From a bacterium (GTDB lineage: Bacteria > Sysuimicrobiota > Sysuimicrobiia > Sysuimicrobiales > Segetimicrobiaceae), in NCBI GenBank assembly GCA_035307765.1, contig DATGHU010000034.1, positions 253,417-317,416 on the forward strand: a stretch of DNA of 64,000 nt, read 5' to 3'. Within the stretch, counting starts at the first letter, position 1, and every line of letters begins with the position of its first letter. A program made the position numbers and the translations under genes. The notes under the pieces are model-generated. The model did not search any database. It saw only the letters and a list, made by a program, of their open reading frames with translations, and was not told the DNA's origin. This document shows, one piece after another, positions 20,301-61,697 of the stretch.

Positions 20301-20512
20301 CTCGCGCGCGGTTCCGCCCTCGCCCGGATATCAGCCCCATGATAGGGGCGAGGCGGCGGGTGTCAAGGAGGATCATGCCGGCGAGCGCACGATGCCGCGG
20401 GCGCACGGCGGCGGACCGAGCCGCGGGCGGCGTGGACAGGGAAAAAGGAGAGCCCTCCGCGGCCTAGAATCCGCATCAGCATGTGTTCGGCAGGCGCCGC
20501 GGGAGCGCGCAG

Positions 20513-21340
20513 ATGTTCTTCTTGATCCTGATCATGTCGGCGGGGGCGGGCGTCGCCGGGGCGGTCCTGGGGTTGGGCGGGGGGACATTCATCGTCCCGG
20601 CGCTCACGCTGGTCTTGAAGCTCCCCATTCGCTACGCGATCGGGGCGAGCATCGTCTCCGTCATCGCGACCAGCAGCGGCGCCGCAGCCGCCTACATCCG
20701 GGACCACCTCACCAATCTCAGGATCGGCATCGCCCTTGAGGTCATGACCGTCCTGGGGGCGTTCACCGGTGCGTTCGCCGCGGGGCACGTGTCGCCGCGG
20801 TTGTTGTATGTGATCTTCGGGATTCTCCTTGCCTATTCCGCGATCGCCCTACTCGGGCGGCTGAAGTTGGAACTGCCCGGCGAGGTCCCGCATGATCCCC
20901 TCGCCGCGCGCCTCCGGTTCGCCGGCCACTACTACGACCAGGCGCTTCGCCAGCGGGTGCCGTACGAAGCGACGGGGGTGATCCCCGGAGGCGTGATGAT
21001 GTATCTCGCCGGGGTCCTCTCGGGGCTCCTGGGGATCGGCAGCGGGCTGTTCAAGGTGCTGGCGATGGATATTGCGATGCGGCTGCCGATGAAGGTGTCC
21101 ACTTCCACGAGCAACTTCATGATCGGGGTCACCGCGGCCGCCAGCGCCGGAGTCTACTTCGCCCGCGGCGACGTCTATCCGCTCGTGGTCGCGCCCGTCG
21201 CGCTGGGCGTCCTGGGCGGCGCTTGGGTCGGCACGCGCATCCTGGGCCACCTGCGAAACACCACGATCCGCAAGCTCTTCATCCCGATCCTGGCGGTCGT
21301 CGCGGTCAGCATGATCGTGAGGGGGCTCGGGCTCCGATGA
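20513..21340 (+). CDS. TauE/SafE family sulfite/anion exporter
   Basis: Membrane protein with two repeated halves of about four membrane segments each. The first conserved motif, GAGVAGAVLGLGGGTFIVPAL, is near the N terminus and the second (LSGLLGIGSGLFKV) is in the middle, the usual duplicated signature. Members export sulfite, sulfoacetate or related anions. ATG 20513 follows GGGAG by 7 bp; a GTG at 20483 is an alternative start without ribosome binding site. The stop overlaps the ATG of the DUF1634 gene, a common partner of this family. Confidence 0.9.
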   Translation: MFFLILIMSAGAGVAGAVLGLGGGTFIVPALTLVLKLPIRYAIGASIVSVIATSSGAAAAYIRDHLTNLRIGIALEVMTVLGAFTGAFAAGHVSPRLLYVIFGILLAYSAIALLGRLKLELPGEVPHDPLAARLRFAGHYYDQALRQRVPYEATGVIPGGVMMYLAGVLSGLLGIGSGLFKVLAMDIAMRLPMKVSTSTSNFMIGVTAAASAGVYFARGDVYPLVVAPVALGVLGGAWVGTRILGHLRNTTIRKLFIPILAVVAVSMIVRGLGLR

Positions 21341-21770: not shown

Positions 21771-22550
21771 CTACCGCCCGGCCCAGCGCGGCGCGCGGCG
21801 CTCCCGGAAGGCCGCGATCCCCTCCTGGCAGTCGGCGGTGGCGTAGAGCATGCGCTGCAGCTGCCCCTCGAACTCCAAGCCGGCCTCCAACGTCGCCCCC
21901 AGCCCATGCCGAATCGCCCGTTTCGCGGCGCGCACCGCGAGGGGCGCGTTGGCGGCAATGATCCGCGCGGTCTCGCCGACCGCCCGGGAGAGGTCCTCGG
22001 GGGCGACGACGGCGTCGACGAGTCCGATCCGGTGAGCCTCCTGGGCGCCGATCCGCCGGCCGCTCAAGATCAGGGCCATCGCTCGGGACGACCCGACGAG
22101 TCGCGGCAGGCGCTGCGTCCCGCCGGCCGCCGGGACGATCCCCCGGGCGACTTCGGGACACCCAAACTCGGCGCTGCTGGCGGCCCAGCGGAGATCGCAC
22201 CCCAGCGCCACCTCACATCCGCCGCCGAGCGCGTAGCCATTGACCGCGGCGATCGTCGGCACCGCCATCCGCTCCAGCCCCAGGGGGATCTGGAAGATCA
22301 GGCGGTTGTGGGCCCAGATCGCCTCGAGCGCGGCCCCCTCCCGCTCCAGGAGGTCTGCCCCCGCGCAAAACGCCCGCCCCTCGCCGGTGAGGATGAGGAC
22401 GCGCGCCCCCGGGTCCTGGTCGACCCGCGCCAGCGCGTCCAGCATGTCCCGGCACAGCCCGCTGTTCAGCGCGTTGAGCGCGTCGGGCCGTCGAAGCGTC
22501 AGGATGTAGATCCCCTCCGAGCCGTCCAACGTCACGAACGAAACCGGCAT
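21771..22550 (-). CDS. Enoyl-CoA hydratase/isomerase family protein
   Basis: Crotonase-fold enzyme acting on acyl-CoA. GEGRAFCAGADL forms part of the CoA/oxyanion site, NGYALGGGCEVALGCDLRWA carries the first catalytic Glu region and FGCPEVARGIVPAAGGTQRL the second Glu region, so hydratase activity is likely. ATG 22550 is preceded by GGGAGGAG 6 bp away; the longer frame to 22724 overlaps the divergent flavin reductase. 259 aa, typical length. Confidence 0.9.
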   Translation of the reverse strand: MPVSFVTLDGSEGIYILTLRRPDALNALNSGLCRDMLDALARVDQDPGARVLILTGEGRAFCAGADLLEREGAALEAIWAHNRLIFQIPLGLERMAVPTIAAVNGYALGGGCEVALGCDLRWAASSAEFGCPEVARGIVPAAGGTQRLPRLVGSSRAMALILSGRRIGAQEAHRIGLVDAVVAPEDLSRAVGETARIIAANAPLAVRAAKRAIRHGLGATLEAGLEFEGQLQRMLYATADCQEGIAAFRERRAPRWAGR

Positions 22551-22635
22551 CGCGCGCTCCTCCCTTTGCCGCGGGGCCAGGAGAAAGGACCCGCCCGCCT
22601 TCCCGCGTAAACTCTTCCGGCGTGAGCCTTTCCTC

Positions 22636-23166
22636 ATGATAGGTGGTGCGATGGGATTGAACAATCCGGGGGAGCGTCCGGCGATCGACCCCGCGGCCAG
22701 AAAACAGGTCCTGCGGCTCATCACCTACGGCCTGTACGTCCTGACCTCCGCCGCCGACGACGATCTGGCCGCCGGCACGATCACGTGGCTGTCGCAGGCG
22801 TCGTTTACCCCCCCGCTGGTCATGGCGGGCGTCCGCCGGGACGGCCACGTGCACGCCGTCGTCGATCGCAGTAGCACGTTCGCCGTGAACGTGGTGGGGG
22901 CCGACCAGCGGGAGATCGCCTCCGCCTTCTTCCGCACCTCCGTGGTGGCGGCGGGGCGGATCAGCGGCTACGCGTTCGAGCGGGGGCGCGCAACCGGTGC
23001 TCCGATCTTGACCGATCTGCCGGCGTGGTTCGAGGCGCGCGTCACCGATGCCGTCCGGCGGGGGGATCACACGATCTTCGTGGCCGAGATCGTCGCCTGC
23101 GGGGTGCGGGATCCCGCCGCGAGCCCGCTCGCGTTGTCGGACACCCCGTGGTCGTACGCCGGGTAG
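22636..23166 (+). CDS. Flavin reductase family protein
   Basis: FMN-binding split-barrel protein, 176 aa. The pattern RLITYGLYVLTSA, then GTITWLSQASFTPPLVMAGV and FAVNVVGADQ is the flavin reductase-like domain that binds FMN and reduces or uses it with NAD(P)H. It may serve an oxygenase or act alone. Divergent from the enoyl-CoA hydratase; overlaps or nearly touches the next PPOX-type gene. Confidence 0.87.
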   Translation: MIGGAMGLNNPGERPAIDPAARKQVLRLITYGLYVLTSAADDDLAAGTITWLSQASFTPPLVMAGVRRDGHVHAVVDRSSTFAVNVVGADQREIASAFFRTSVVAAGRISGYAFERGRATGAPILTDLPAWFEARVTDAVRRGDHTIFVAEIVACGVRDPAASPLALSDTPWSYAG

Positions 23167-23192
23167 CGGCACGGCCGCGCACGGCGGCCGGC

Positions 23193-23606
23193 ATGCTCCG
23201 CCGGGCGCGGGTCGGCCGGCTCGCGACGGCGGACCCGCAGGGCCAGCCCCACGTCGTCCCCGTCTGCTTCGCCTTCGACGGCGCTGCCGTCTACATCGCC
23301 ATCGACGACAAGCCCAAGCGTGCGGCTCCCCGCCGCCTGCGGCGGGTCCGAAACATCGAGGCCAATCCCCAAGTGGCCCTGGTGATCGATCACTACGAGG
23401 AGGACTGGAGACGCCTCGGCTTCGTCCTGATGACGGGGACGGCGCAGATGATCGCGGAGGGCCGCGATTACCTGCGCGCCCTGACGCTGCTTCGGCGCAA
23501 GTACCGCCAATATCGGGCGATGCGCCTGGAGAACAACCCGGTGATCAAGATCTCGCCGCGGCGCACCGTCGCCTGGACGGCGACGCCCCGGAAGGGATCT
23601 GCCTAG
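23193..23606 (+). CDS. PPOX-class flavin/F420-dependent oxidoreductase (TIGR03668-like)
   Basis: Split beta-barrel protein, about 137 aa. RVGRLATADPQGQPHVVPVC and the following FAFDGAAVYIAIDDKPKRA are characteristic of the pyridoxamine-phosphate-oxidase-like family that includes F420-dependent reductases. The family start is usually some 10 residues earlier, so a GTG near 23142, overlapping the previous gene, is possible. Stop overlaps the stop region of the convergent DapA-like gene. Cofactor (FMN, F420 or heme) cannot be decided. Confidence 0.8.
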   Translation: MLRRARVGRLATADPQGQPHVVPVCFAFDGAAVYIAIDDKPKRAAPRRLRRVRNIEANPQVALVIDHYEEDWRRLGFVLMTGTAQMIAEGRDYLRALTLLRRKYRQYRAMRLENNPVIKISPRRTVAWTATPRKGSA

Positions 23607-24505
23607 GGAGCGGGCGGGAGCAGCCCCAGTTCGGCGCAGACGCGGTCGAGGTCGCCGCGATCCTCCGCGCTCGGCACCGGGAGGGGGTTGCGCGCCCTCG
23701 CGGTGGCGATGACGCCGGCGCGCCAGAGGTAGTGCTTGACCAGGGCGAGACCGACCGCGGGCTGATTCGTGAGGCGGATCACGGGGTGGAATCGGTGAAA
23801 GAGCACGCGGGCTTCCACCGCACGACCGGCCTGCCAGTGGGTCCAGATCTCCACGTAGACGCCGGGCATGATCGCGGCCGGCATCGTGCCGCGCGCGCCC
23901 CGCGCCAGTTCCTCGACGAACCAATTTCCCCCCAGCCCGCCGAGAAGGGTGAGCCGATCGGCAGCGGCACGACGCAGCTCGCTGATCTTCGACAGCGGCG
24001 CCGGGGTCTCGACTTTGACGTACCGGATCAGCGGATGATCCGCCAGCCGGACGATGAGGTCGGCGGGGATCGTCACTCCGGTCCATCCCGGATTGTCCTG
24101 GATCATGATCGGAATTCCCGCCGCGTCCGCGACCGTGGTGTAGTAGGTGTGCAGCGCCTGCGCCGTCGGCTTGACGAAGTACGGTGGCATGACCATGAGC
24201 GCGGCCGCGCCGGCGCGGGCCGCATCACGGGCGAGCACGGCGGCGGCCTCCGCGCTGTTGTGGCTCGCGCCGACCACCACGGGGACCCGACCGGCGGCCT
24301 GCGCCACAACCGTCTCCGCGACCGTCCGGCGCTCTCCGTCGGTGAGCGCGAAGATCTCTCCCGCGACCCCGAGGGCCGCGAGTCCGTGCACCCCCGCATC
24401 GATCAGGTAGTCGACGAGCCGCCGGAGGCTCGGGAGATCGAGCTCCCCACGAGCGTCAAACGGGGTGGCAACGATCGGCACAACACCCTGCAGCGTCGCC
24501 GGCAT
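23603..24505 (-). CDS. Dihydrodipicolinate synthase/N-acetylneuraminate lyase family aldolase
   Basis: Schiff-base class I aldolase or dehydratase, TIM barrel. The lysine is in RYVKVETP (about residue 165), GVAGEIFALTDGER corresponds to the pyruvate-binding GTTGE loop (with Val-Ala in place of the two Thr), and the catalytic Tyr region reads IMIQDNPGWTG, i.e. Gln where DapA has Tyr. It is therefore not a housekeeping DapA but a catabolic member acting on a 2-keto-3-deoxy acid. ATG 24505 follows GGGAGG. Last gene of the minus-strand operon 23603-27964. Confidence 0.85.
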   Translation of the reverse strand: MPATLQGVVPIVATPFDARGELDLPSLRRLVDYLIDAGVHGLAALGVAGEIFALTDGERRTVAETVVAQAAGRVPVVVGASHNSAEAAAVLARDAARAGAAALMVMPPYFVKPTAQALHTYYTTVADAAGIPIMIQDNPGWTGVTIPADLIVRLADHPLIRYVKVETPAPLSKISELRRAAADRLTLLGGLGGNWFVEELARGARGTMPAAIMPGVYVEIWTHWQAGRAVEARVLFHRFHPVIRLTNQPAVGLALVKHYLWRAGVIATARARNPLPVPSAEDRGDLDRVCAELGLLPPAP

Positions 24506-24575
24506 CTGTCGGCCTCCCACTCCCAAGGCGGCGTCTCCGCCGCCCGGCTTCCCGCCCCGCGTGCGGCGGGGGGAC

Positions 24576-25766
24576 TCACGCCCGGACCCGATTGACCTCG
24601 CCCCGGCCGGACACGTACTCGGCGAGCGCGGCGACGTCCACGTCGACGCCGAGGCCGGGGCCCGCCGGCACGATCAGCGATCCGCGGTCCAGCCGCAGCG
24701 GCGGAGCAATGAAGCGGTTCGTCAATTCCAGCATCGGCGGATGGTGCTCCTGGATCAGAAAGTGCGGGAGCGTCGCGGCGACGTGCCAGGTGGCGGCCAT
24801 CGCCACCCCCAACGACACCCCGAGGTGCAGGGCGACGGGGCGGCGGTACGCCGCCGCCAGCTCGGCGATGCGGCAGCCCTCGGTGATCCCGCAGCGGGCG
24901 ATGTCGGGCTGCGCGACGTCAAGGGCGTCCTGCCTGAGCCAGTCGGCAAACTGGTGGCCCGTGCGGAGGGCCTCACCGACCGCCACCGGGAGATCGAGCT
25001 GGTTCGCCAGACGGGCGTGCCCCAAGACATCCTCCGGCTCGATGGGAGATTCCAGCCACTCCACGCCGAGCGCCGCCAGCCGCCCCCCGAGCCGCACCGC
25101 CTCCTCCATCGAGTAGACCCAGAAGGCGTCGGCCACGAGGCGGGCGCCCGAGCCCACGCGGTCGCGGACGGCCGCTGCCTGCGCGACGTCGGGGTCGAGA
25201 CCGTGGCCGAGATACAGCTTGACGCCCGCGTACCCGGCCCGAAAGCACTCCGCGGCCAGCGCGGCGCGGTCCTCCACCGTCGGCGCGCGCAGCCCGGAGA
25301 CGTAGGCCGGCAGCCGGTCCCGCAGCGGGGCGCCGATCGCCGCCGCGAGCGGGGTCCCGGCCGCCTTCGCCGCGATGTCCCATAGGGCGATGTCCAGCCC
25401 GCTGATCGCATCGACCATGAACCCGGTAAAATGCCCGCGCACGTTCATGCTCTGATACATCCGATCACGCAGGGCGCGCACATCGCGGGGGTCCGCCCCG
25501 AGCAGCATCGGCCCGAGGAGACGGTCGACCACGGCCTGGGCGGCCTCAGGCACGATGGGGGCCTGGCACTCGCCCCACCCGTGCAGGCCCTGGTCGGTGT
25601 CGATCCGCACCAGCAGCGACTCCGTCCGGTCGGCGTAGACTTCCCGCCAGTCCTCTTCAAAGTAGTACTCGCTTCCGGGAAAGCGGGCGGGGCGCGCCGT
25701 GTGGCCGCCGAAGCGATCGTGATAGGGGATCTTCACCGCAAATGTCTGGACTCGATCGATCCGCAC
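24576..25766 (-). CDS. Mandelate racemase/muconate lactonizing (enolase superfamily) enzyme
   Basis: Abstracts the proton next to a carboxylate. 396 aa with N-terminal capping domain and C-terminal barrel. Metal ligands lie in VADAFWVYS (Asp), WLESPIEPED (Glu) and AVGEALRTG (Glu). AGVKLYLGHG carries the first Lys, and PVALHLGVSLG carries a His in the position used by dehydratase members. It is probably a sugar-acid dehydratase. GTG 25766 lies 6 bp after GAGAGG. Enzyme order in the operon (dehydratase then aldolase) is the logic of a sugar-acid pathway. Confidence 0.86.
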   Translation of the reverse strand: MRIDRVQTFAVKIPYHDRFGGHTARPARFPGSEYYFEEDWREVYADRTESLLVRIDTDQGLHGWGECQAPIVPEAAQAVVDRLLGPMLLGADPRDVRALRDRMYQSMNVRGHFTGFMVDAISGLDIALWDIAAKAAGTPLAAAIGAPLRDRLPAYVSGLRAPTVEDRAALAAECFRAGYAGVKLYLGHGLDPDVAQAAAVRDRVGSGARLVADAFWVYSMEEAVRLGGRLAALGVEWLESPIEPEDVLGHARLANQLDLPVAVGEALRTGHQFADWLRQDALDVAQPDIARCGITEGCRIAELAAAYRRPVALHLGVSLGVAMAATWHVAATLPHFLIQEHHPPMLELTNRFIAPPLRLDRGSLIVPAGPGLGVDVDVAALAEYVSGRGEVNRVRA

Positions 25767-25779
25767 CGAGCACCTCTCC

Positions 25780-26502
25780 CTACGCGAGTGCCTGCACGGC
25801 GCCGAGAATCCCGACGACCAGCAGGAATCCGAGGACCGTCCGCTCGAACCCGCGCTCCGACAACCGGGCGGCGACGGCGATGCCGCCCGCATATCCCAGG
25901 AGAGCGCACGGGACGAGGGCGAGCGCCAGCCGGATCGTCGGCGGGGGCATGGCGCCCGACAGCACCAGCAGTCCCACGCTGGCCAGCGTCGTCAGAAAGA
26001 CGAACGCGACGATGTTCGCGCGGAAGAGATCCTTGGACTGCCCCCACCAGAGCAGCAGTAACGCCACGGGCGGTCCGTTCAGGCTGGTCCCCGTGGAAAG
26101 AATCCCGCTCACCACCCCCGCCGCAACCGCCTGCCAGGGAGCCGGACGAACGCGGGGACGAACGCCGGTCAGCCTGGAGGCGGCAAACGCGGCGGTGAGC
26201 CCGGCGATGGCCACCTTGATCGCTACGGGGTGGGCATGGAGCAAGAGGAAAAGCCCCAGCGGCATCCCGGCCAGGCTGGAGAGAGACATCCGGCCCACCA
26301 GCTTCCAGTCGGCCCCGAGGCGGATCTCGGGACGCGCGAGCAGGACCCCACTCGTGACGGTCCCGAGCGCCAGGGTCAGTGCGACGATCGTCCGGGGAGG
26401 GTACACCGCGGCAAGCAGCGGCGCGCTGAACAGGTTGAAGCCAAACCCGGTGGCGGCGGCCCCAGCCGCCGCCGCGAGAATCACCAGCGCGGCGTAGATC
26501 AC
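25780..26502 (-). CDS. TauE/SafE family transporter
   Basis: Second transporter of this family in the window, 240 aa, about eight membrane segments; motifs AGAAATGFGFNLFSAPLLAA and VVSGILSTGTSLNGPPVALL. GTG 26502 overlaps the aminotransferase stop (GTGA). In other bacteria such proteins export sulfite or sulfoacetate or import organic anions, so here it may move the substrate or product of the pathway encoded by its neighbours. Confidence 0.86.
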   Translation of the reverse strand: MIYAALVILAAAAGAAATGFGFNLFSAPLLAAVYPPRTIVALTLALGTVTSGVLLARPEIRLGADWKLVGRMSLSSLAGMPLGLFLLLHAHPVAIKVAIAGLTAAFAASRLTGVRPRVRPAPWQAVAAGVVSGILSTGTSLNGPPVALLLLWWGQSKDLFRANIVAFVFLTTLASVGLLVLSGAMPPPTIRLALALVPCALLGYAGGIAVAARLSERGFERTVLGFLLVVGILGAVQALA

Positions 26503-27869
26503 GAGCGGCCGCCCGCCCCCCCCGCCGCAGAGGTCCGCCCCCCCAGCGCGGCGACGGCCGCCGCGGCGGCCTCGATGAGCTGCGCGGTCTCGCGCGGCGT
26601 GACCACGAGCGGCGGGGCAAGGATCACAGGGTTGTCGACAAACGCCAGCACGCCGCGGTGGCGCAGGTCCCGCTCCAGCCGGTCGAGATCGCGGGAGCGG
26701 AGGCGGCGGGGCGCGCGCGTCGCGCGGTCCTCCACCAGCTCGATCGCGACCATCAGACCCACCCCGCGCACCTCCCCGACGGCCGGGCAGGTCGCGAGCG
26801 CCTGCCGCAGTCCCTCGCGCAGCCGTGCGCCCTCGACGGCGGCGCGAGCGGCAAGATCCTCCGCCGCAACGATCCGGAGGCAGGCCAGAGCGGCCGCGCA
26901 CGCGGCGGGGTGTCCGGAGTAGGTGAACCCATGCGGGATCATCCTCGCCTCAAGCCGAGCCGCGACGTGGGAGCGCATCGCCACGGCGGCGAGCGTCTGA
27001 TAGCCGCCGGTCATCCCCTTGCCGAGGATCATCAGGTCCGGAACCACCCCCCAGTGGTCGCAGGCGAACCACCGGCCGGTGCGCCCGAACCCGGTGATCA
27101 CCTCGTCGGCGACGAGCAGCACCCCGTACCGATCGCAGATCGCCCGCAGGCGCGGCCAATAGTCGTCGGGGGGCACCAGGACGCCGCCCGGGCCGGGAAC
27201 CGGCTCCGCGAAGACCGCGGCCACCCGATCCGGGCCCGCGGCGGCGATCGCCTCTTCCACGGCCCCGGCACACGCCAGGGTGCAGGCCGGGCCGTCCGCA
27301 CAGAACCGGCACCGGTACCGATACGGCGCCGGGGTAAACCGGATGCCAGCCAGGCGCGCGCCGATCCCACGGAGCAACCCGCGGTCGGGATCGCTGAGGG
27401 ATGCCCCGGCATAGGTACTGCCGTGCGCCGAGTACTCGCGGCTGATCACGATTCGCCGGCGGCGCTCGCCAGCCGCGGAATGATACAGGCGCGCGAACTT
27501 CAGCGCCGTGTCGACGGCTTCGGACCCGGTCGGGACCAGCGCCACCGCCGAGAGATCGCCGGGGAGAACGTCCGCCAGCCGCGCCGCCAGGTCCAGCGCC
27601 AGCGGTGATGCGGCGTCGGTGAGCGGGGCAAACGAAAGCCGGCGGAGCTGCTCGTGCACGGCGTCCGCCACGTCCGCGCGCCCGTAGCCGACCGTCACCG
27701 CCCACAGCCCGGACCGGGCGTCGAGGTAGGCCCGGCCGCGGTCATCCCAAACCCGGCACCCCTCGCCCCGCACCAAGAGCAGAGGGCCGCCCCGTCGGCG
27801 CAGCGCGGTTTGCGCCTGCCCTTGCAACCACAGCGACCCACCCGGCCCGGAGGCCGGGGCCGGCTTCAC
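26499..27869 (-). CDS. Class III (omega-amino acid type) aminotransferase
   Basis: PLP enzyme, 456 aa, of the group that includes taurine-, beta-alanine- and adenosylmethionine-type transaminases. PTGSEAVDTALKFARLYH binds the phosphate, VADEVITGFGRTG holds the PLP-binding Asp and MILGKGMTGGYQTL the Schiff-base Lys. A cysteine-bearing insert YRYRCRFCADGPACTLACAG is typical for part of this family. GTG 27869 overlaps the stop of a 32-codon ORF. Together with a TauE/SafE exporter this could indicate organosulfonate or beta-amino acid degradation; the exact substrate is unknown. Confidence 0.87.
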   Translation of the reverse strand: MKPAPASGPGGSLWLQGQAQTALRRRGGPLLLVRGEGCRVWDDRGRAYLDARSGLWAVTVGYGRADVADAVHEQLRRLSFAPLTDAASPLALDLAARLADVLPGDLSAVALVPTGSEAVDTALKFARLYHSAAGERRRRIVISREYSAHGSTYAGASLSDPDRGLLRGIGARLAGIRFTPAPYRYRCRFCADGPACTLACAGAVEEAIAAAGPDRVAAVFAEPVPGPGGVLVPPDDYWPRLRAICDRYGVLLVADEVITGFGRTGRWFACDHWGVVPDLMILGKGMTGGYQTLAAVAMRSHVAARLEARMIPHGFTYSGHPAACAAALACLRIVAAEDLAARAAVEGARLREGLRQALATCPAVGEVRGVGLMVAIELVEDRATRAPRRLRSRDLDRLERDLRHRGVLAFVDNPVILAPPLVVTPRETAQLIEAAAAAVAALGGRTSAAGGAGGRS

Positions 27870-27964
27870 CTCGCCGCGCCGCGCATGTCCGGGGAGATCC
27901 GGTGCCGGTCACACCGGTCGACGGCCGGGCCCTTCGCGGCGCCGGCGATGCCGTGGCAGTTCAT
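27866..27964 (-). CDS. Possible small ORF coupled to the aminotransferase
   Basis: 32 codons, ATG 27964 preceded by GGAAGGAG 7 bp away, ending in a TGA that overlaps the GTG start of the aminotransferase (GTGA), exactly as the other genes of this operon overlap. The peptide (NCHGIAGAAKGPAVDRCDRH and so on) resembles nothing I know. It may be a real small protein or a translated leader that feeds ribosomes into the weak GTG start. Confidence 0.4.
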   Translation of the reverse strand: MNCHGIAGAAKGPAVDRCDRHRISPDMRGAAR

Positions 27965-29814: not shown

Positions 29815-30030
29815 ACCTTTCTCCCCCCAGCCCCTGGATCCGTCGCATTCGCCGGGGGAACGCCCTTTGCGGATCAGCCCGCGGCTTCTCGGTCGGGATT
29901 GTGCCGGACCCGGCTCCCGCCCAAACTCCGGCGCTCCCCCCCGGCGGCAGGAAGTGATCCCTCCCGCTCTGAAAACAGGACGCGGTCGACGCGAAAAACC
30001 GGCGCAGTGGGACACGAGGAGGGCCAGACC

Positions 30031-31485
30031 ATGGCAGTGCGGGAGGTTCCGCTATTCATCGACGGGCACTGGGTCAACGGTCACGTCGGCGGCAAATTCG
30101 AAGTGCTCAACCCGGCGACGTCTGAACCGATCGCCGCCGTTCCCGACGGCGGCCCCGAACAGGCGCGGGCGGCCGTCGACGCCGCCGCCCAGGCGTTCCC
30201 GAAGTGGGCCGCGCTGACCGCGCTCCAGCGCGGCGCCATCCTCTTGAAAGCTCGGGACATCCTGACCTCGCGGATCGATGCGCTGGCGCGCCTGATCACC
30301 GAAGAAAACGGCAAGCCGGTCGCCGAGGCGAAGGGCGAGGTGACGTTCGGCATCCAATACCTCCCCTGGTTTGCTGAGGAAGCCCGGCGCGTCTACGGCG
30401 AGATCGTCCCTCCGCCCGTGCCGCACAAGCGGCTCTGGGTCACCCATCAGCCCATCGGGGTCGTCGCCGCGATCACGCCCTGGAACTTTCCCGCCACGAT
30501 GGTGCTCCGCAAAATCGCTCCCGCGCTCGCCGCCGGGTGTACGGTGGTGCTGAAACCGCCCAAGGAAACTCCGCTCACGGCGATCGAAATCGCCCGGGCC
30601 TTCGAGGAGGTGGGTCTGCCCCACGGGGTGTTCAACGTCGTGGTCGGGAAGCGCGCCGCGCCGATCGCGGAGGTCTTCATGAACGATCACCGCGTCCGCA
30701 AAATCGCCTTCACCGGCTCGACCGAGATCGGCAAGATGTTGATGGCCCAGGCGGCGAACCAGCTCAAGCGCGTCGCGTTCGAGTTGGGCGGCAATGCCCC
30801 GTATATCGTCTTCGACGACGCGGACATCGACAGGGCGGTGGCCAACGCGGTCGCGATCAAGTACTTCCGCGTCGGCGGCCAATCGTGCATCTGCGCGAAT
30901 CGGGTCTACGTGCAGCGCCCCGTCGCCGAGGCATTCCTGGCGAAGTTCACAGAGGCGGTTCGGGCGATCAAGGTCGGCTCGGGCTTTGAACCCGGGGTGA
31001 TGGTCGGCCCGATGATCAACGCGGAGACACTCGAAAAGGTGGAAGGCCTCGTCAACGACGCCGTGAAGAGAGGGGCCCGCCCGCTCACCGGAGGGCACCG
31101 GTTGACCGAAGGGGCCTATCGCCAGGGGTTCTTCTTCGCCCCGACCGTGCTGACGGACGTGACGGAGGAGATGCCGGTGGCGCACGACGAGACGTTTGGC
31201 CCGGTGGCGCCGGTGCTCGTCTTCGACACCGATGACGAGGTCATCGCCCGATCGAACAACACGGCGTTTGGCCTAGCCGCGTACGTGGCGGCGCGCGACA
31301 TGCGCCGGATCATCCGGGTCAGCGAGGCGCTGGAGTACGGGTTGATCTGCGTGAACGACGCCACGGGGTACACGCACGAGATTCCGTTTGGCGGCTTCAA
31401 GGAAAGCGGCCTGGGTCGCGAGGGCGGGCGTCAGGGCATCGAGGAGTACATGGAGGTGAAATCCATCTCCCTGAACATCAGTTGA
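30031..31485 (+). CDS. NAD(P)-dependent aldehyde dehydrogenase (succinate-semialdehyde dehydrogenase-like)
   Basis: Oxidises an aldehyde to a carboxylic acid. 484 aa. Cofactor motif AITPWNFPATMVLRKIAPAL, FTGSTEIGK loop, the general-base Glu in FELGGNAP (residue 251) and nucleophile Cys in GGQSCICANR (residue 286). Spacing and length match GabD-type enzymes. ATG 30031 follows GAGGAGGG; the frame is open further upstream to 29788 but without coding character. The FAD oxidoreductase begins 31 bp downstream on the same strand. Confidence 0.92.
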   Translation: MAVREVPLFIDGHWVNGHVGGKFEVLNPATSEPIAAVPDGGPEQARAAVDAAAQAFPKWAALTALQRGAILLKARDILTSRIDALARLITEENGKPVAEAKGEVTFGIQYLPWFAEEARRVYGEIVPPPVPHKRLWVTHQPIGVVAAITPWNFPATMVLRKIAPALAAGCTVVLKPPKETPLTAIEIARAFEEVGLPHGVFNVVVGKRAAPIAEVFMNDHRVRKIAFTGSTEIGKMLMAQAANQLKRVAFELGGNAPYIVFDDADIDRAVANAVAIKYFRVGGQSCICANRVYVQRPVAEAFLAKFTEAVRAIKVGSGFEPGVMVGPMINAETLEKVEGLVNDAVKRGARPLTGGHRLTEGAYRQGFFFAPTVLTDVTEEMPVAHDETFGPVAPVLVFDTDDEVIARSNNTAFGLAAYVAARDMRRIIRVSEALEYGLICVNDATGYTHEIPFGGFKESGLGREGGRQGIEEYMEVKSISLNIS

Positions 31486-58665: not shown

Positions 58666-58846
58666 GAGGGATGACCCTCGTGGCGTCCTCGAGGGTACGG
58701 TAGCGAAAAAATCGTGAGGTGGCAATCCGAACGCCCCCGGGGGGCGTGAGGGGGTGGGGTTCGCTGGTGCCCCCACCGGCGAACCCAGGCGACCGCTTCG
58801 GTCGGGTGAGAACAGGAGACCGCCCTCCTCAGTGGAAGGGTACGGG

Positions 58847-60067
58847 ATGCCTAACGAAGGCTCGGCGCTGAGCGGCGTCCGGGTTGTCGATCTCACGCAG
58901 TTCGAGGCTGGCACCTCGTGCACTGAAACGCTGGCCTGGTTGGGAGCTGACGTGATCAAGGTGGAGCCGCCCGGTCGGGGCGAACAGGGTCGGGCCGCCT
59001 CCACTGACATCCCGGGCCTGGACTCCTACTATTTCCTGCTCCTGAACGCCAACAAGCGCTCGGTCACCCTCAACCTCAAACACCCTGAGGGGCGCCGCCT
59101 GCTCGGGCGTTTGATCGAAAAGGCGGATGTGTTCGTGGAGAATTTCGCGCCCGGGATCATCGAGCGTCTGGGGTTTGGCTATCATGACGTGCGCCGGATC
59201 AATCCCCAAGTCATCTACGCGCAAGTCAAGGGATTCGCGCCGGACGGTCCTTTCGGCAGCTTCCTCGCGTTCGACATGATCGCCCAGGCGACGGGTGGCG
59301 CGATGAGCCTCACCGGGGAACCGGGGGCCGCGCCCATCAAGCCGGGGCCGACGATCGGCGACACCGGGGCCGGCCTGCACCTGGCGATCGGCATTTTGGC
59401 CGCCCTCTTCCAGCGGGAGCGGACGGGCGTGGGCCAGCAGGTGGACGTGGCGATGCAGGAGGCCGTCATCAACTATTGTCGGATTTCATTTGCCCGCCAG
59501 CTGCTCACCGGCCGCGCGGCCGAGCGGTGGGGCAACCAAAGCCAGTTGGGGATGACGGCGCCCAGCGGTATCTACCCTTGTCGGCCCGGGGGGGCCAACG
59601 ATTACGTGTTCATCTACACCAGCCGGGCCGGCAATCACCAGTGGGAACGCCTGCTGAAGGTGATCGGCCGCGATGATCTGAAGGACGATCCCCGGTTCGG
59701 GGACCCCGTCCGCCGGGCCGCCAACGCAGCGGCGATCGACGAACTGATCTCCTCTTGGACCCGCCGGTACACGAAGCGCGAGGCGATGGAGTGCCTGGGC
59801 CAGGCGGGAGTGCCCGCGGGGGCGACCTTCGACACCCTGGAGTTGACCGAAGACGAACACCTGAACCGCAGGGAGGCCATTGTCAGCGTCGATCACCCAA
59901 CGAGAGGCCTGGTCAAGATGCCGGGCTGGCCGGTGAAGATGGAGCGCTCGCACGTGCGGGTTGAGGCGGCACCCCTGCTGGGTCAGCACAATCGCGAAGT
60001 CTACGCGGAGCTCCTTGGGCTGAGCGAGGATGAACTGGCCAGGCTGGGCGAAGCGGGGGCGATTTGA
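58847..60067 (+). CDS. CoA transferase, CaiB/BaiF (family III)
   Basis: 406 aa. LSGVRVVDLTQFEAGTSCTE opens the fold, IKVEPPGRGEQGR and LNLKHPEGRRLLGRLIEKAD follow, and AFDMIAQATGGAMSLTGEPG contains the catalytic Asp. Transfers CoA between organic acids such as formate/oxalate, carnitine or succinate. ATG 58847 follows GGAAGGG. A TPP-dependent lyase gene begins 10 bp downstream, so together they resemble the formyl-CoA transferase/oxalyl-CoA decarboxylase pair. Confidence 0.92.
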   Translation: MPNEGSALSGVRVVDLTQFEAGTSCTETLAWLGADVIKVEPPGRGEQGRAASTDIPGLDSYYFLLLNANKRSVTLNLKHPEGRRLLGRLIEKADVFVENFAPGIIERLGFGYHDVRRINPQVIYAQVKGFAPDGPFGSFLAFDMIAQATGGAMSLTGEPGAAPIKPGPTIGDTGAGLHLAIGILAALFQRERTGVGQQVDVAMQEAVINYCRISFARQLLTGRAAERWGNQSQLGMTAPSGIYPCRPGGANDYVFIYTSRAGNHQWERLLKVIGRDDLKDDPRFGDPVRRAANAAAIDELISSWTRRYTKREAMECLGQAGVPAGATFDTLELTEDEHLNRREAIVSVDHPTRGLVKMPGWPVKMERSHVRVEAAPLLGQHNREVYAELLGLSEDELARLGEAGAI

Positions 60068-60077
60068 GGGAGGGGCG

Positions 60078-61697
60078 ATGACCGGCAACGAGATCCTGGC
60101 GCGCTGCCTCAAAGCCCAGGGGGTGGAGGTCATCTTCTTCCTCATGGGAGGCCCCATGATCGACTGCGAGAACGCCTGCCTGGGGCAGGGAATCCGGATG
60201 ATCGACGCCCGCCACGAGCAGGCAGCCGCGATGATGGCAACCGCCTACAGTCGCCTGCGGCGTCAACCCGCGGTCTGCATGGCCTGCAGCGGTCCCGGTG
60301 CGATGAACTTGGTCACCGGGGTGGCGAACGCGTTTGCGGATTCCGCTCCTGTGGTGGCCATCGGCGGGTCAAGTCCGGTCTCCCAGTCGGGCATGGGGGC
60401 TTTCCAGGAGACCGACCAAGTGGCGCTGTTCCGGCCGATCACGCGCTGGGCCGATCGCTGTTACGATCCCAGGCGCATCCCCGAGTTAGTCGGGACGGCC
60501 TTCCGCCACGCGTTCGGCTCCCGGCCAGGACCGGCCTACCTCGACATGCCGGGGGACATCCTCTACCGCGAGGTCCCGGAGGATCACGTGCGCTGGGCAC
60601 CGGCCACCGCCGAGCGCCGGCGACCGCCTGGGGACCCCCACTTGGTGAAACGCGCCGTCGAACTGATCGCCGCCTCCGCGCGCCCAATCCTTATCAGTGG
60701 CAGCGGGGTGCTTTGGGCGAAGGCTGAGCGAGAATTACGCACCCTGGTGGAGCGGGCGACCATCCCATTTTACACCACCCCCCAGGGGCGGGGGGTCATA
60801 CCCGAGGACCACCCGCTGTGCTTCCTGGGCGCCCGCGGCGTCGGTTGGCGGGAGGCCGATCTGATCGTCATGGTGGGCACCCGACAGAACTACGTCGTCG
60901 GATACACTCGGCCACCCCGCTGGAATTCGGAGGCGAAGCTGATCCAGGTCGACATCGATCCCGCTGAGATCGGCCGCAATCGGCACGCGGATGTCGGCAT
61001 TGTTGGAGACGCCAAAGCCGTGCTCGCGCAGCTCGTGGAGGCGAGCGAGGGCACCGTCGGCGCTGAGCGGAGGAGGAGCTGGACCTCCTACCTGGCCGAA
61101 CAGCACGCAGAGAGGCAGGCCGAGCAGGAGAGGCGGATGTCTTCCGACACCCAGCCCATCCACCCCCTCCGCCTCTGCAAGGAAGTCCGCAACTTCCTCC
61201 CCCGGGATGCGATCCTTTGTGTGGACGGGCAGGAGATCCTCAACTACGCCCGAAGCGCGATCCCATTCTACGCTCCGCACAGCCTCAACTCCGGCCCCTA
61301 CGGCTGCATGGGCGTGGGCCTCCCGCTTGGGGTGGGGGCGAAGGTCGCCATGCCCGACAAGTTGGTGGTCGTCCTCCATGGCGACGGCTCCTTCGGTCTC
61401 AACGCCATGGAGATGGACACGGCCCTCCGGCACCACCTGCCTGTGATCTGTGTGATCTCGAACAACGGCGGCTGGACCGCCACCGATCGATTCAAAGTCG
61501 GCCGCGAGCTCGGCTTCACCCGTTATGATCTCATGTTTGCCGCCATCGGCTGCCATTCCGAGTACGTCCGGGACCCGAGTCTCATCCGGCCGGCCCTGGA
61601 ACGAGCGGCGGCCAGCGGGAAGCCGGCGGTGGTCAACGTCGTCACCGACCCCACCGCGCGGGCCCAGACCGTCCGCTTTGCCGACTACTCAACGTGA
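60078..61697 (+). CDS. TPP-dependent lyase (acetolactate synthase/oxalyl-CoA decarboxylase/2-hydroxyacyl-CoA lyase superfamily)
   Basis: 539 aa with the three domains of the family: ARHEQAAAMMATAYSRLRRQ holds the Glu that activates TPP, PGAMNLVTGVANAFADSAP the N-domain interface, and HGDGSFGLNAMEMDTALRHH with VISNNGGWTA the TPP/Mg-binding GDG...NN motif. ATG 60078 follows GAGGGAGG. The neighbouring CoA transferase suggests an acyl-CoA substrate (oxalyl-CoA or a 2-hydroxyacyl-CoA) rather than acetolactate synthesis; no small regulatory subunit gene is adjacent. Confidence 0.86.
   Translation: MTGNEILARCLKAQGVEVIFFLMGGPMIDCENACLGQGIRMIDARHEQAAAMMATAYSRLRRQPAVCMACSGPGAMNLVTGVANAFADSAPVVAIGGSSPVSQSGMGAFQETDQVALFRPITRWADRCYDPRRIPELVGTAFRHAFGSRPGPAYLDMPGDILYREVPEDHVRWAPATAERRRPPGDPHLVKRAVELIAASARPILISGSGVLWAKAERELRTLVERATIPFYTTPQGRGVIPEDHPLCFLGARGVGWREADLIVMVGTRQNYVVGYTRPPRWNSEAKLIQVDIDPAEIGRNRHADVGIVGDAKAVLAQLVEASEGTVGAERRRSWTSYLAEQHAERQAEQERRMSSDTQPIHPLRLCKEVRNFLPRDAILCVDGQEILNYARSAIPFYAPHSLNSGPYGCMGVGLPLGVGAKVAMPDKLVVVLHGDGSFGLNAMEMDTALRHHLPVICVISNNGGWTATDRFKVGRELGFTRYDLMFAAIGCHSEYVRDPSLIRPALERAAASGKPAVVNVVTDPTARAQTVRFADYST

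What the first reader, a model, noticed from the sequence alone, without database searches (positions are those of the whole stretch)
23603..27964. Four-enzyme/transporter catabolic operon with an unassigned substrate
Aminotransferase (class III), TauE/SafE exporter, enolase-superfamily dehydratase and DapA-family aldolase follow in one minus-strand block with GTGA overlaps at the front. Deamination, dehydration and aldol cleavage would degrade an amino-sugar acid or an amino-organosulfonate, and a TauE/SafE protein would export sulfite. This combination does not equal any textbook pathway I know.
Basis: inference. Interest (0 to 1): 0.5.

Follow-up and report, generated by a model that had tools for sequence, protein, structure and literature searches.

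The report
Sugar-acid genes inside aminotransferase operon
The four genes are real, but they look like two ordinary pathways side by side: a sugar-acid breakdown module sits next to an aminotransferase that belongs to an older, separate gene group.

Summary
The genes are as described: class III aminotransferase (AT), TauE/SafE-family permease, enolase-superfamily dehydratase (ENO) and DapA-family enzyme, with one true GTGA overlap (AT/TauE). They are probably not one pathway. In 7 of 7 AT loci from other genera of the family, AT is followed directly by a crotonase and faces an aldehyde dehydrogenase and/or FAD oxidoreductase. In the window, TauE-ENO-DapA and two small oxidoreductase genes separate AT from that crotonase; in two congeners other oxidoreductases lie there. 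ENO-DapA is a recurrent pair: same strand within 400 bp in 22 of 80 named ENO relatives, mostly with sugar genes where examined; AT occurred in 1 of 80, TauE in 0. DapA resembles L-2-keto-3-deoxyarabonate dehydratase: it keeps the Lys, Gln and Glu173 but not Glu200. Best reading: a sugar-acid module (aldonate to 2-keto-3-deoxyaldonate, then probably a second dehydration), not amino-sugar or sulfonate catabolism. Substrate and TauE cargo remain unassigned. New member of a known kind; modest interest.

The parts
26499..27869 (-). Class III aminotransferase (AT); its conserved partners are the crotonase, aldehyde dehydrogenase and FAD oxidoreductase, not ENO/DapA
   Evidence: PF00202 309 bits; matches of 69-84% identity in 10 of the 11 other f1 genomes searched; crotonase directly downstream in 7 of 7 loci from other genera
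25780..26502 (-). TauE/SafE-family permease; GTGA overlap with AT
   Evidence: PF01925 83 bits; five other places at 50-61% identity: after AT in G002, after a K-x-E type DapA at three places in G005 and G011, beside rsmI-like and homoserine dehydrogenase genes in G009 and also G011
24576..25766 (-). Enolase-superfamily (mandelate racemase-like) dehydratase ENO; K183, D213, E239, E265, D288, H314, E340 conserved
   Evidence: PF02746 and PF13378; those columns invariant in 7 aligned sequences, window included
23603..24505 (-). DHDPS/NAL-family enzyme, L-2-keto-3-deoxypentonate-dehydratase-like; K164, E166, Q136
   Evidence: PF00701 156 bits; best solved relatives 7c0c and 3fkk, L-2-keto-3-deoxyarabonate dehydratase, E about 1e-44; K164 and E166 invariant and Q136 at least 90% in 16 aligned sequences, window included
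21771..22553 (-). Crotonase/enoyl-CoA hydratase: conserved partner of AT, separated from it here
   Evidence: NCBIfam enoyl-CoA hydratase models, best 245 bits, below that model's cut-off of 363; adjacent to AT in 7 of 7 loci from other genera
22636..23166 (+). Flavin reductase-like protein, also next to the crotonase in G001, G002 and G003
   Evidence: StyB-type model 64 bits, below cut-off
23163..23606 (+). PPOX-class F420-type oxidoreductase (start approximate), also in G001, G002 and G003
   Evidence: TIGR03668 159 bits, cut-off 119
30025..31485 (+). Aldehyde dehydrogenase, succinate-semialdehyde-dehydrogenase-like, divergent from AT; possible last step for either pathway (start approximate)
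   Evidence: TIGR01780 594 bits, below its cut-off of 646; divergent from AT in 5 of the 10 other f1 AT loci fetched: L064, L068, L069, L071, L073
31517..33469 (+). FAD-dependent oxidoreductase of the conserved AT cluster
   Evidence: PF12831 297 bits; present in 7 of 7 AT loci from other genera

Best explanation
The block is two units. ENO and DapA, perhaps with TauE, are a sugar-acid (aldonate) catabolic module placed in a stretch, variable within the genus, between an aminotransferase and its conserved downstream crotonase. Proposed mechanism: ENO, a metal-dependent dehydratase with a His-Asp dyad, removes water from an aldonate to give a 2-keto-3-deoxyaldonate. DapA binds the keto group as a Schiff base through K164 and, with E166 where aldolases rely on a tyrosine, eliminates a second water; from a pentonate this gives alpha-ketoglutaric semialdehyde. 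A semialdehyde dehydrogenase, possibly the neighbour at 30025-31485, oxidises it to 2-oxoglutarate. TauE would be a permease for the acid or a keto-acid product. AT serves a separate omega-amino acid or amine route with the aldehyde dehydrogenase and crotonase. Shown: gene content, synteny, conserved residues. Inferred: substrate, second dehydration rather than aldol cleavage, TauE's membership and cargo, the ALDH role, the AT pathway.
For: AT cluster: crotonase directly after AT, and ALDH and/or FAD oxidoreductase opposite, in 7 of 7 loci from other genera. The stretch between PPOX and AT differs in the genus: a nitroreductase-family gene in G001, a nitroreductase-family and a luciferase-like monooxygenase gene in G003; G002 has ENO beside PPOX without DapA on one contig and AT-TauE on another. 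ENO-DapA pair: same strand within 400 bp in 22 of 80 named relatives (names), plus Nonomuraea, Rahnella, Sinorhizobium medicae and Variovorax. Contexts: carbohydrate-type ABC genes, MFS + KDGal kinase + KDPGal aldolase, SDR + SMP-30 lactonase, IclR regulators. DapA: best solved match 7c0c; K164, E166 and Q136 stand at the spacing of Lys171, Glu173 and Gln143, residues described in PMC9795676; K-x-E in 33 of 35 aligned sequences that I chose, the two exceptions being tyrosine-bearing proteins encoded beside homoserine dehydrogenase.
Against: Glu200 of the reference dehydratase is not kept: glycine at the aligned place. The K/Q/E set is wider than the characterised enzyme: 6 of 6 DapA relatives opened in the plasmid collection have it, and 3 of these (Paracoccus, Comamonas, a Comamonadaceae bacterium) have no ENO within 7 kb and lie by amino-acid-type ABC genes, two of them also by a dihydropyrimidinase. 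No NCBIfam model names this DapA. In Rahnella, Pantoea and Variovorax the pair sits with a KDGal kinase and aldolase, which points to a hexonate and leaves DapA's role unclear. 58 of 80 ENO relatives have no same-strand DapA within 400 bp, though 11 of the 80 have under 1200 bp on one side. AT-TauE adjacency recurs in G002, where AT's other neighbour is a trehalose-phosphate synthase/phosphatase gene and not the ALDH. The ALDH scores as succinate-semialdehyde type and below that cut-off.
Confidence: 0.56

Rival explanations
1. Same sugar-acid module, but DapA is an aldolase (Dahms or non-phosphorylative Entner-Doudoroff type): 2-keto-3-deoxyaldonate is split to pyruvate and an aldehyde, which the neighbouring aldehyde dehydrogenase could oxidise.
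For: DHDPS/NAL enzymes are usually type I aldolases (PMC9795676); Glu200 of the dehydratase is missing; in the Micromonospora relative (L091) ENO, DapA, SDR and SMP-30 lactonase stand together, so DapA could be the final lyase.
Against: Gln136 stands where aldolases have tyrosine, and Glu166, described as restricted to the dehydratase, is conserved.
Confidence: 0.27
2. One four-gene pathway for an amino-sugar acid or other amino acid: AT deaminates, ENO dehydrates, DapA cleaves, TauE exports a product.
For: Co-directional block with a 4-nt AT/TauE overlap; AT-TauE also adjacent in G002; some DapA relatives lie by amino-acid-type ABC genes.
Against: AT has other conserved partners; AT in 1 of 80 and TauE in 0 of 80 ENO-relative loci; in G005 and G011 ENO, DapA and TauE share contigs on which the AT ortholog does not lie.
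Confidence: 0.08
3. Amino-organosulfonate (taurine-like) catabolism with sulfite export by TauE.
For: TauE/SafE family name and a class III aminotransferase.
Against: No Xsc match over its cut-off in the genome (the assembly is 96% complete); PF01925 found in all 14 control genomes; no sulfonate enzyme among the neighbours that I scanned at three DapA-TauE places.
Confidence: 0.03

Closest known systems
Non-phosphorylative (Weimberg, Route II) pentonate degradation: aldonate dehydratase + DHDPS-type L-2-keto-3-deoxypentonate dehydratase + alpha-ketoglutaric semialdehyde dehydrogenase (PMC9795676, PMC6336799, PMC7374468; passages seen)
   Same: Sugar-acid-type dehydratase beside a DHDPS-family enzyme with the Lys/Gln/Glu173 set; an aldehyde dehydrogenase nearby.
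   Different: The dehydratase is enolase-type, reported for archaeal pentonate dehydratases, whereas many bacterial ones are IlvD/EDD; Glu200 not kept; no sugar dehydrogenase or lactonase among the window genes that I annotated; the ALDH is SSADH-like and belongs to another conserved cluster.
ENO-DapA operons of Rahnella, Pantoea, Sinorhizobium medicae, Micromonospora, Nonomuraea
   Same: Adjacent ENO (about 35-45% identical to the window's) and DapA (33-43%); carbohydrate transport, SDR, SMP-30, IclR or KDGal kinase contexts.
   Different: No TauE or AT found at these loci (Sinorhizobium by its annotation); the window has no sugar importer or regulator among the genes beside the pair.
Enolase-superfamily structures 2ppg, 4h1z, 2nql, 4dn1
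   Same: Best solved relatives of ENO (E 1e-51 to 1e-64).
   Different: Deposited under putative isomerase or enolase names; the listing gives no activity.
Omega-amino acid transaminase + semialdehyde dehydrogenase modules (recalled, from no call)
   Same: AT with a divergent SSADH-like ALDH.
   Different: The conserved crotonase and FAD oxidoreductase are additional, and the AT reached no NCBIfam cut-off among the 25 of 69 models shown.

Membership tests
Weimberg/Route II pentonate pathway | Enolase-superfamily (MR-like) dehydratase with metal ligands and His-Asp dyad | tested here: met
   D213, E239, E265, D288, H314, E340 invariant in 7 aligned sequences; the residue roles are recalled
Weimberg/Route II pentonate pathway | DHDPS-type KDP dehydratase residues Lys171, Gln143, Glu173 | tested here: met
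   K164, Q136, E166 aligned and at identical spacing
Weimberg/Route II pentonate pathway | Second base Glu200 of the KDP dehydratase | tested here: not met
   Glycine at the aligned position
Weimberg/Route II pentonate pathway | alpha-Ketoglutaric semialdehyde dehydrogenase | tested here: inconclusive
   ALDH scores 386 of 770 bits for that model and 594 of 646 for SSADH
Weimberg/Route II pentonate pathway | Activity on a pentonate | not testable with these tools
   Needs enzyme assay
Biosynthetic DapA (TIGR00674) | Score over curated cut-off | tested here: not met
   149 of 206 bits
5-dehydro-4-deoxyglucarate dehydratase KdgD (TIGR03249) | Score over curated cut-off | tested here: not met
   82 of 374 bits
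DHDPS/NAL-type 2-keto-3-deoxy acid aldolase | Catalytic tyrosine | tested here: not met
   Gln136 at the position of the replaced tyrosine
Taurine/sulfonate catabolism | Xsc in the genome | tested here: not met
   0 of 10 matches over the 676-bit cut-off, best 392; draft genome
Taurine/sulfonate catabolism | Sulfite transport by TauE | not testable with these tools
   Pfam family match only; no solved relative up to E = 1 by sequence
Named sugar-acid dehydratase models (galactonate, arabinonate, talarate and others) | Score over curated NCBIfam cut-off | tested here: not met
   14 families listed, none over its cut-off; best 166 of 650 bits, AraD_Arch

The most novel reading that the evidence does not exclude
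A TauE/SafE subfamily that works as a sugar-acid or 2-keto-acid permease paired with KDP-dehydratase-like DapA enzymes, placed together with ENO inside an aminotransferase cluster in this genus; with the enolase-type ENO it would be a bacterial Weimberg variant whose substrate is not yet assigned.
Probability: 0.18. Interest if true: 0.42.

Novelty: new member of a known kind. Interest (0 to 1): 0.25.

Why it matters
It corrects a tempting one-operon reading and gives a testable substrate class for a widespread ENO-DapA pair. If this DapA clade is a second dehydratase rather than an aldolase, names such as 'dihydrodipicolinate synthase family protein' mislead across the six phyla in which the pair was seen. 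The TauE link would suggest that some TauE/SafE proteins carry organic acids and not sulfite, but it rests on few loci.

Tried and rejected
A single four-gene pathway: rejected on synteny. Sulfonate catabolism: rejected on Xsc and on the ubiquity of PF01925. Biosynthetic DapA, KdgD and N-acetylneuraminate lyase: scores far below cut-offs. A protein scan of genome contigs with ENO alone confirmed no relative; alignment A1 did, keeping the best 80 of at least 585 relatives, a capped list. TauE against plasmids in protein mode: no match. TauE against solved structures: none up to E = 1.

Literature: the listings of searches showed no paper that seemed from its title or abstract start to describe this ENO-DapA pair; only open-licence PMC papers are held and I did not read all of them, so this is no proof of absence. 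Searches 52 (TauE), 57 and 67 served side questions. Papers: PMC9795676, passages and its DHDPS/NAL section; PMC12445098, PMC10444878, PMC6336799 and PMC7374468, passages only; all others as listings. The host taxon was not determined; one search was on a guessed phylum and tested nothing.

Limits: one search uses the best-scoring ENO hit per locus. One search aligned 35 DapA sequences that I picked (the window, the ENO-adjacent ones, and some near TauE or among best hits), so 33 of 35 is no random sample. Several relatives' gene limits came from a GC3-based caller of mine and are approximate. An earlier count said that TauE2 lies by the crotonase in 7 of 7 loci; recounted it is 6 of 7.
Full report
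Observation. The four genes are real and in the stated order on the minus strand: AT 26499-27869, TauE 25780-26502, ENO 24576-25766, DapA 23603-24505, each over its Pfam cut-off. The AT stop and the TauE start share GTGA. The other GTGA lies between a 32-codon frame starting at 27964 and the AT start, so 27964 is not the start of AT. The window is G000:C34:253417-317416 of an unnamed 3.8-Mb draft genome; its taxon was not established.

The aminotransferase has other partners. G000-G011 are one family, f1: G000-G004 are one genus, G005-G011 other genera. AT matches are 69-84% identical in 10 of the 11 other genomes; G004, 64% complete, has only a 42% match. I fetched these 10 loci. In all 7 from other genera a crotonase follows AT on the same strand; the opposite side carries the ALDH and then the FAD oxidoreductase in 4, and the FAD oxidoreductase directly in 3. 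In the window the same genes are present, but TauE, ENO, DapA, a PPOX-class gene and a flavin reductase-like gene lie between AT and the crotonase, and a DUF3096 gene and a Cu_amine_oxidN1 gene lie between AT and the ALDH. In congeners G001 and G003 the stretch between PPOX and AT holds, instead, a nitroreductase-family gene (G001) and a luciferase-like monooxygenase plus a nitroreductase-family gene (G003). In G002, ENO (72%) sits beside PPOX with no DapA and with a GNAT gene on its other side, and AT-TauE lies at the end of another contig, where AT's other neighbour is a trehalose-phosphate synthase/phosphatase gene and not the ALDH. The stretch is thus variable within the genus, and in G002 the AT cluster itself is altered.

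The ENO-DapA pair. In f1, ENO, DapA and TauE meet without AT: in G005:C12 the order is sugar-type ABC genes, ENO, an unassigned gene, an ApbA-family reductase, DapA, TauE, and further on an IclR regulator; in G011:C57 ENO and a family 5 solute-binding protein are divergent from DapA-TauE; in G005:C91 DapA-TauE follows a creatininase-family gene. In G009 TauE has neither AT nor this DapA type beside it; there and in G011 it precedes an rsmI-like methylase, a tyrosine-type DapA and a homoserine dehydrogenase, so the DapA-TauE contact in G011 may be incidental. A scan of named genomes with alignment A1 kept the best 80 of at least 585 relatives. DapA lies on the same strand within 400 bp of ENO in 22 of 80; one more, a Chloroflexi MAG (L087), is divergent at 251 bp; TauE was in 0 of 80 and AT in 1 of 80. 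By record title the 22 include Actinomycetota, Pseudomonadota, Bacteroidota, Acidobacteriota, Chloroflexota and Planctomycetota (phyla assigned from general knowledge of the names). In the plasmid collection, 3 of 3 ENO hits that I opened have DapA next door; of 5 DapA hits opened besides, Variovorax has ENO next to it, Jannaschia has two weak ENO matches nearby, and Paracoccus, Comamonas and a Comamonadaceae bacterium have no ENO match in the 15 kb seen. Neighbours of the examined pairs are mostly sugar genes: KDGal kinase and KDPGal aldolase (Rahnella, Pantoea, Variovorax), carbohydrate ABC, SMP-30 and SDR (Sinorhizobium medicae), SDR and SMP-30 lactonase directly after DapA (Micromonospora), solute-binding and permease genes with IclR (Nonomuraea). 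The three DapA relatives without ENO lie by amino-acid-type ABC genes instead.

Enzymes. ENO's best solved relatives are 2ppg, 4h1z, 2nql and 4dn1. The positions expected for metal ligands (D213, E239, E265), the His-Asp dyad (H314, D288) and E340 are invariant in seven aligned sequences; the roles are recalled from general knowledge of the mandelate racemase group. None of the 14 NCBIfam families listed for ENO is over its cut-off. DapA's best solved relatives are the L-2-keto-3-deoxyarabonate dehydratase structures 7c0c and 3fkk. The review PMC9795676 states that this enzyme uses Lys171 for the Schiff base, that Gln143 replaced the aldolase tyrosine, that Glu173 and Glu200 are the bases, and that Glu173 is not conserved in other DHDPS/NAL enzymes (section read). 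The window has K164, Q136 and E166 at the same spacing, conserved in the aligned relatives, but glycine at the Glu200 place. In 35 DapA sequences that I chose, 33 have K-x-E; the two exceptions carry tyrosine and the K-D motif and are encoded beside homoserine dehydrogenase. All 6 DapA relatives checked also have K, Q and E, including the three without ENO, so the set is not limited to the characterised enzyme or to sugar loci. PMC7374468 reports that all L-type KDP dehydratases it treated are annotated as DHDPS family (passage).

Mechanism. The best-supported chemistry is aldonate dehydration by ENO, then a Schiff-base reaction by DapA that is more likely a second dehydration than an aldol cleavage. 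The product from a pentonate would be alpha-ketoglutaric semialdehyde. The nearby ALDH is succinate-semialdehyde-dehydrogenase-like, below that cut-off, and one of seven ALDH matches in the genome, one of them partial, so its role here is a guess. Sulfite export is not supported: no Xsc match passes its cut-off and PF01925 occurs in all 14 controls. Near its C-terminus AT reads FVDNP where the two best solved relatives have an arginine, aligned with the Phe in 5lh9 and as an insertion beside it in 6io1; the Phe is kept in the nine aligned AT sequences. From general knowledge that arginine binds carboxylates in many omega-transaminases, so AT's substrate is open.

Results against this reading. 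AT-TauE adjacency recurs in G002, so TauE may travel with AT. The kinase/aldolase operons suggest hexonates and leave DapA unexplained there. Fifty-eight of 80 ENO relatives lack a close same-strand DapA (11 of the 80 have under 1200 bp on one side). Glu200 is missing, and the K/Q/E set also occurs away from sugar genes. No expression data or structure model was obtained.

Verdict. The block is ordinary in kind: a sugar-acid module beside a separate aminotransferase cluster.

Noticed in passing
20483-21340: A second, better-scoring TauE/SafE protein (PF01925 158 bits) on the + strand; its counterpart lies near the crotonase at 6 of the 7 other-genus AT loci (all but L067), so it is the more conserved TauE of this region.
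   Followed up: partly
L080:8548-9520: A DapA-family paralog in the same genome (52% over the first 84 residues) is broken over several frames; intact relatives exist. Described only.
   Followed up: partly
58754-61697: A CoA-transferase III gene followed by a TPP enzyme, possibly a formyl-CoA transferase/oxalyl-CoA decarboxylase pair for oxalate (guess).
   Followed up: no
L064:3015-3617 and L066:1715-3267: The stretch between the PPOX gene and AT in two congeners holds nitroreductase-family and luciferase-like monooxygenase genes, suggesting a local gene-exchange site.
   Followed up: partly
L074:8228-9019 and L039:4599-5471: Creatininase-family hydrolases lie directly beside DapA in one locus and beside ENO in another; a ring-opening step is conceivable.
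   Followed up: no
26499-27869: The AT carries a four-cysteine stretch (CRFC...CTLAC) whose cysteines are kept in the nine aligned AT sequences; a metal site is possible.
   Followed up: no
L087:6644-14296: Chloroflexi MAG: a sulfatase, SDR, DapA divergent from ENO, PhyH and an FAD oxidoreductase, as in a sulfated-sugar locus.
   Followed up: no
L082, L084, L086: DapA relatives with the same K/Q/E set lie without ENO by amino-acid-type ABC genes, two of them with a dihydropyrimidinase, so the clade has further, unexplained roles.
   Followed up: partly
L034: Nonomuraea record NZ_LT559118.1 is labelled a plasmid but has 11.85 Mb and 10 annotated features; it is chromosome-sized.
   Followed up: no
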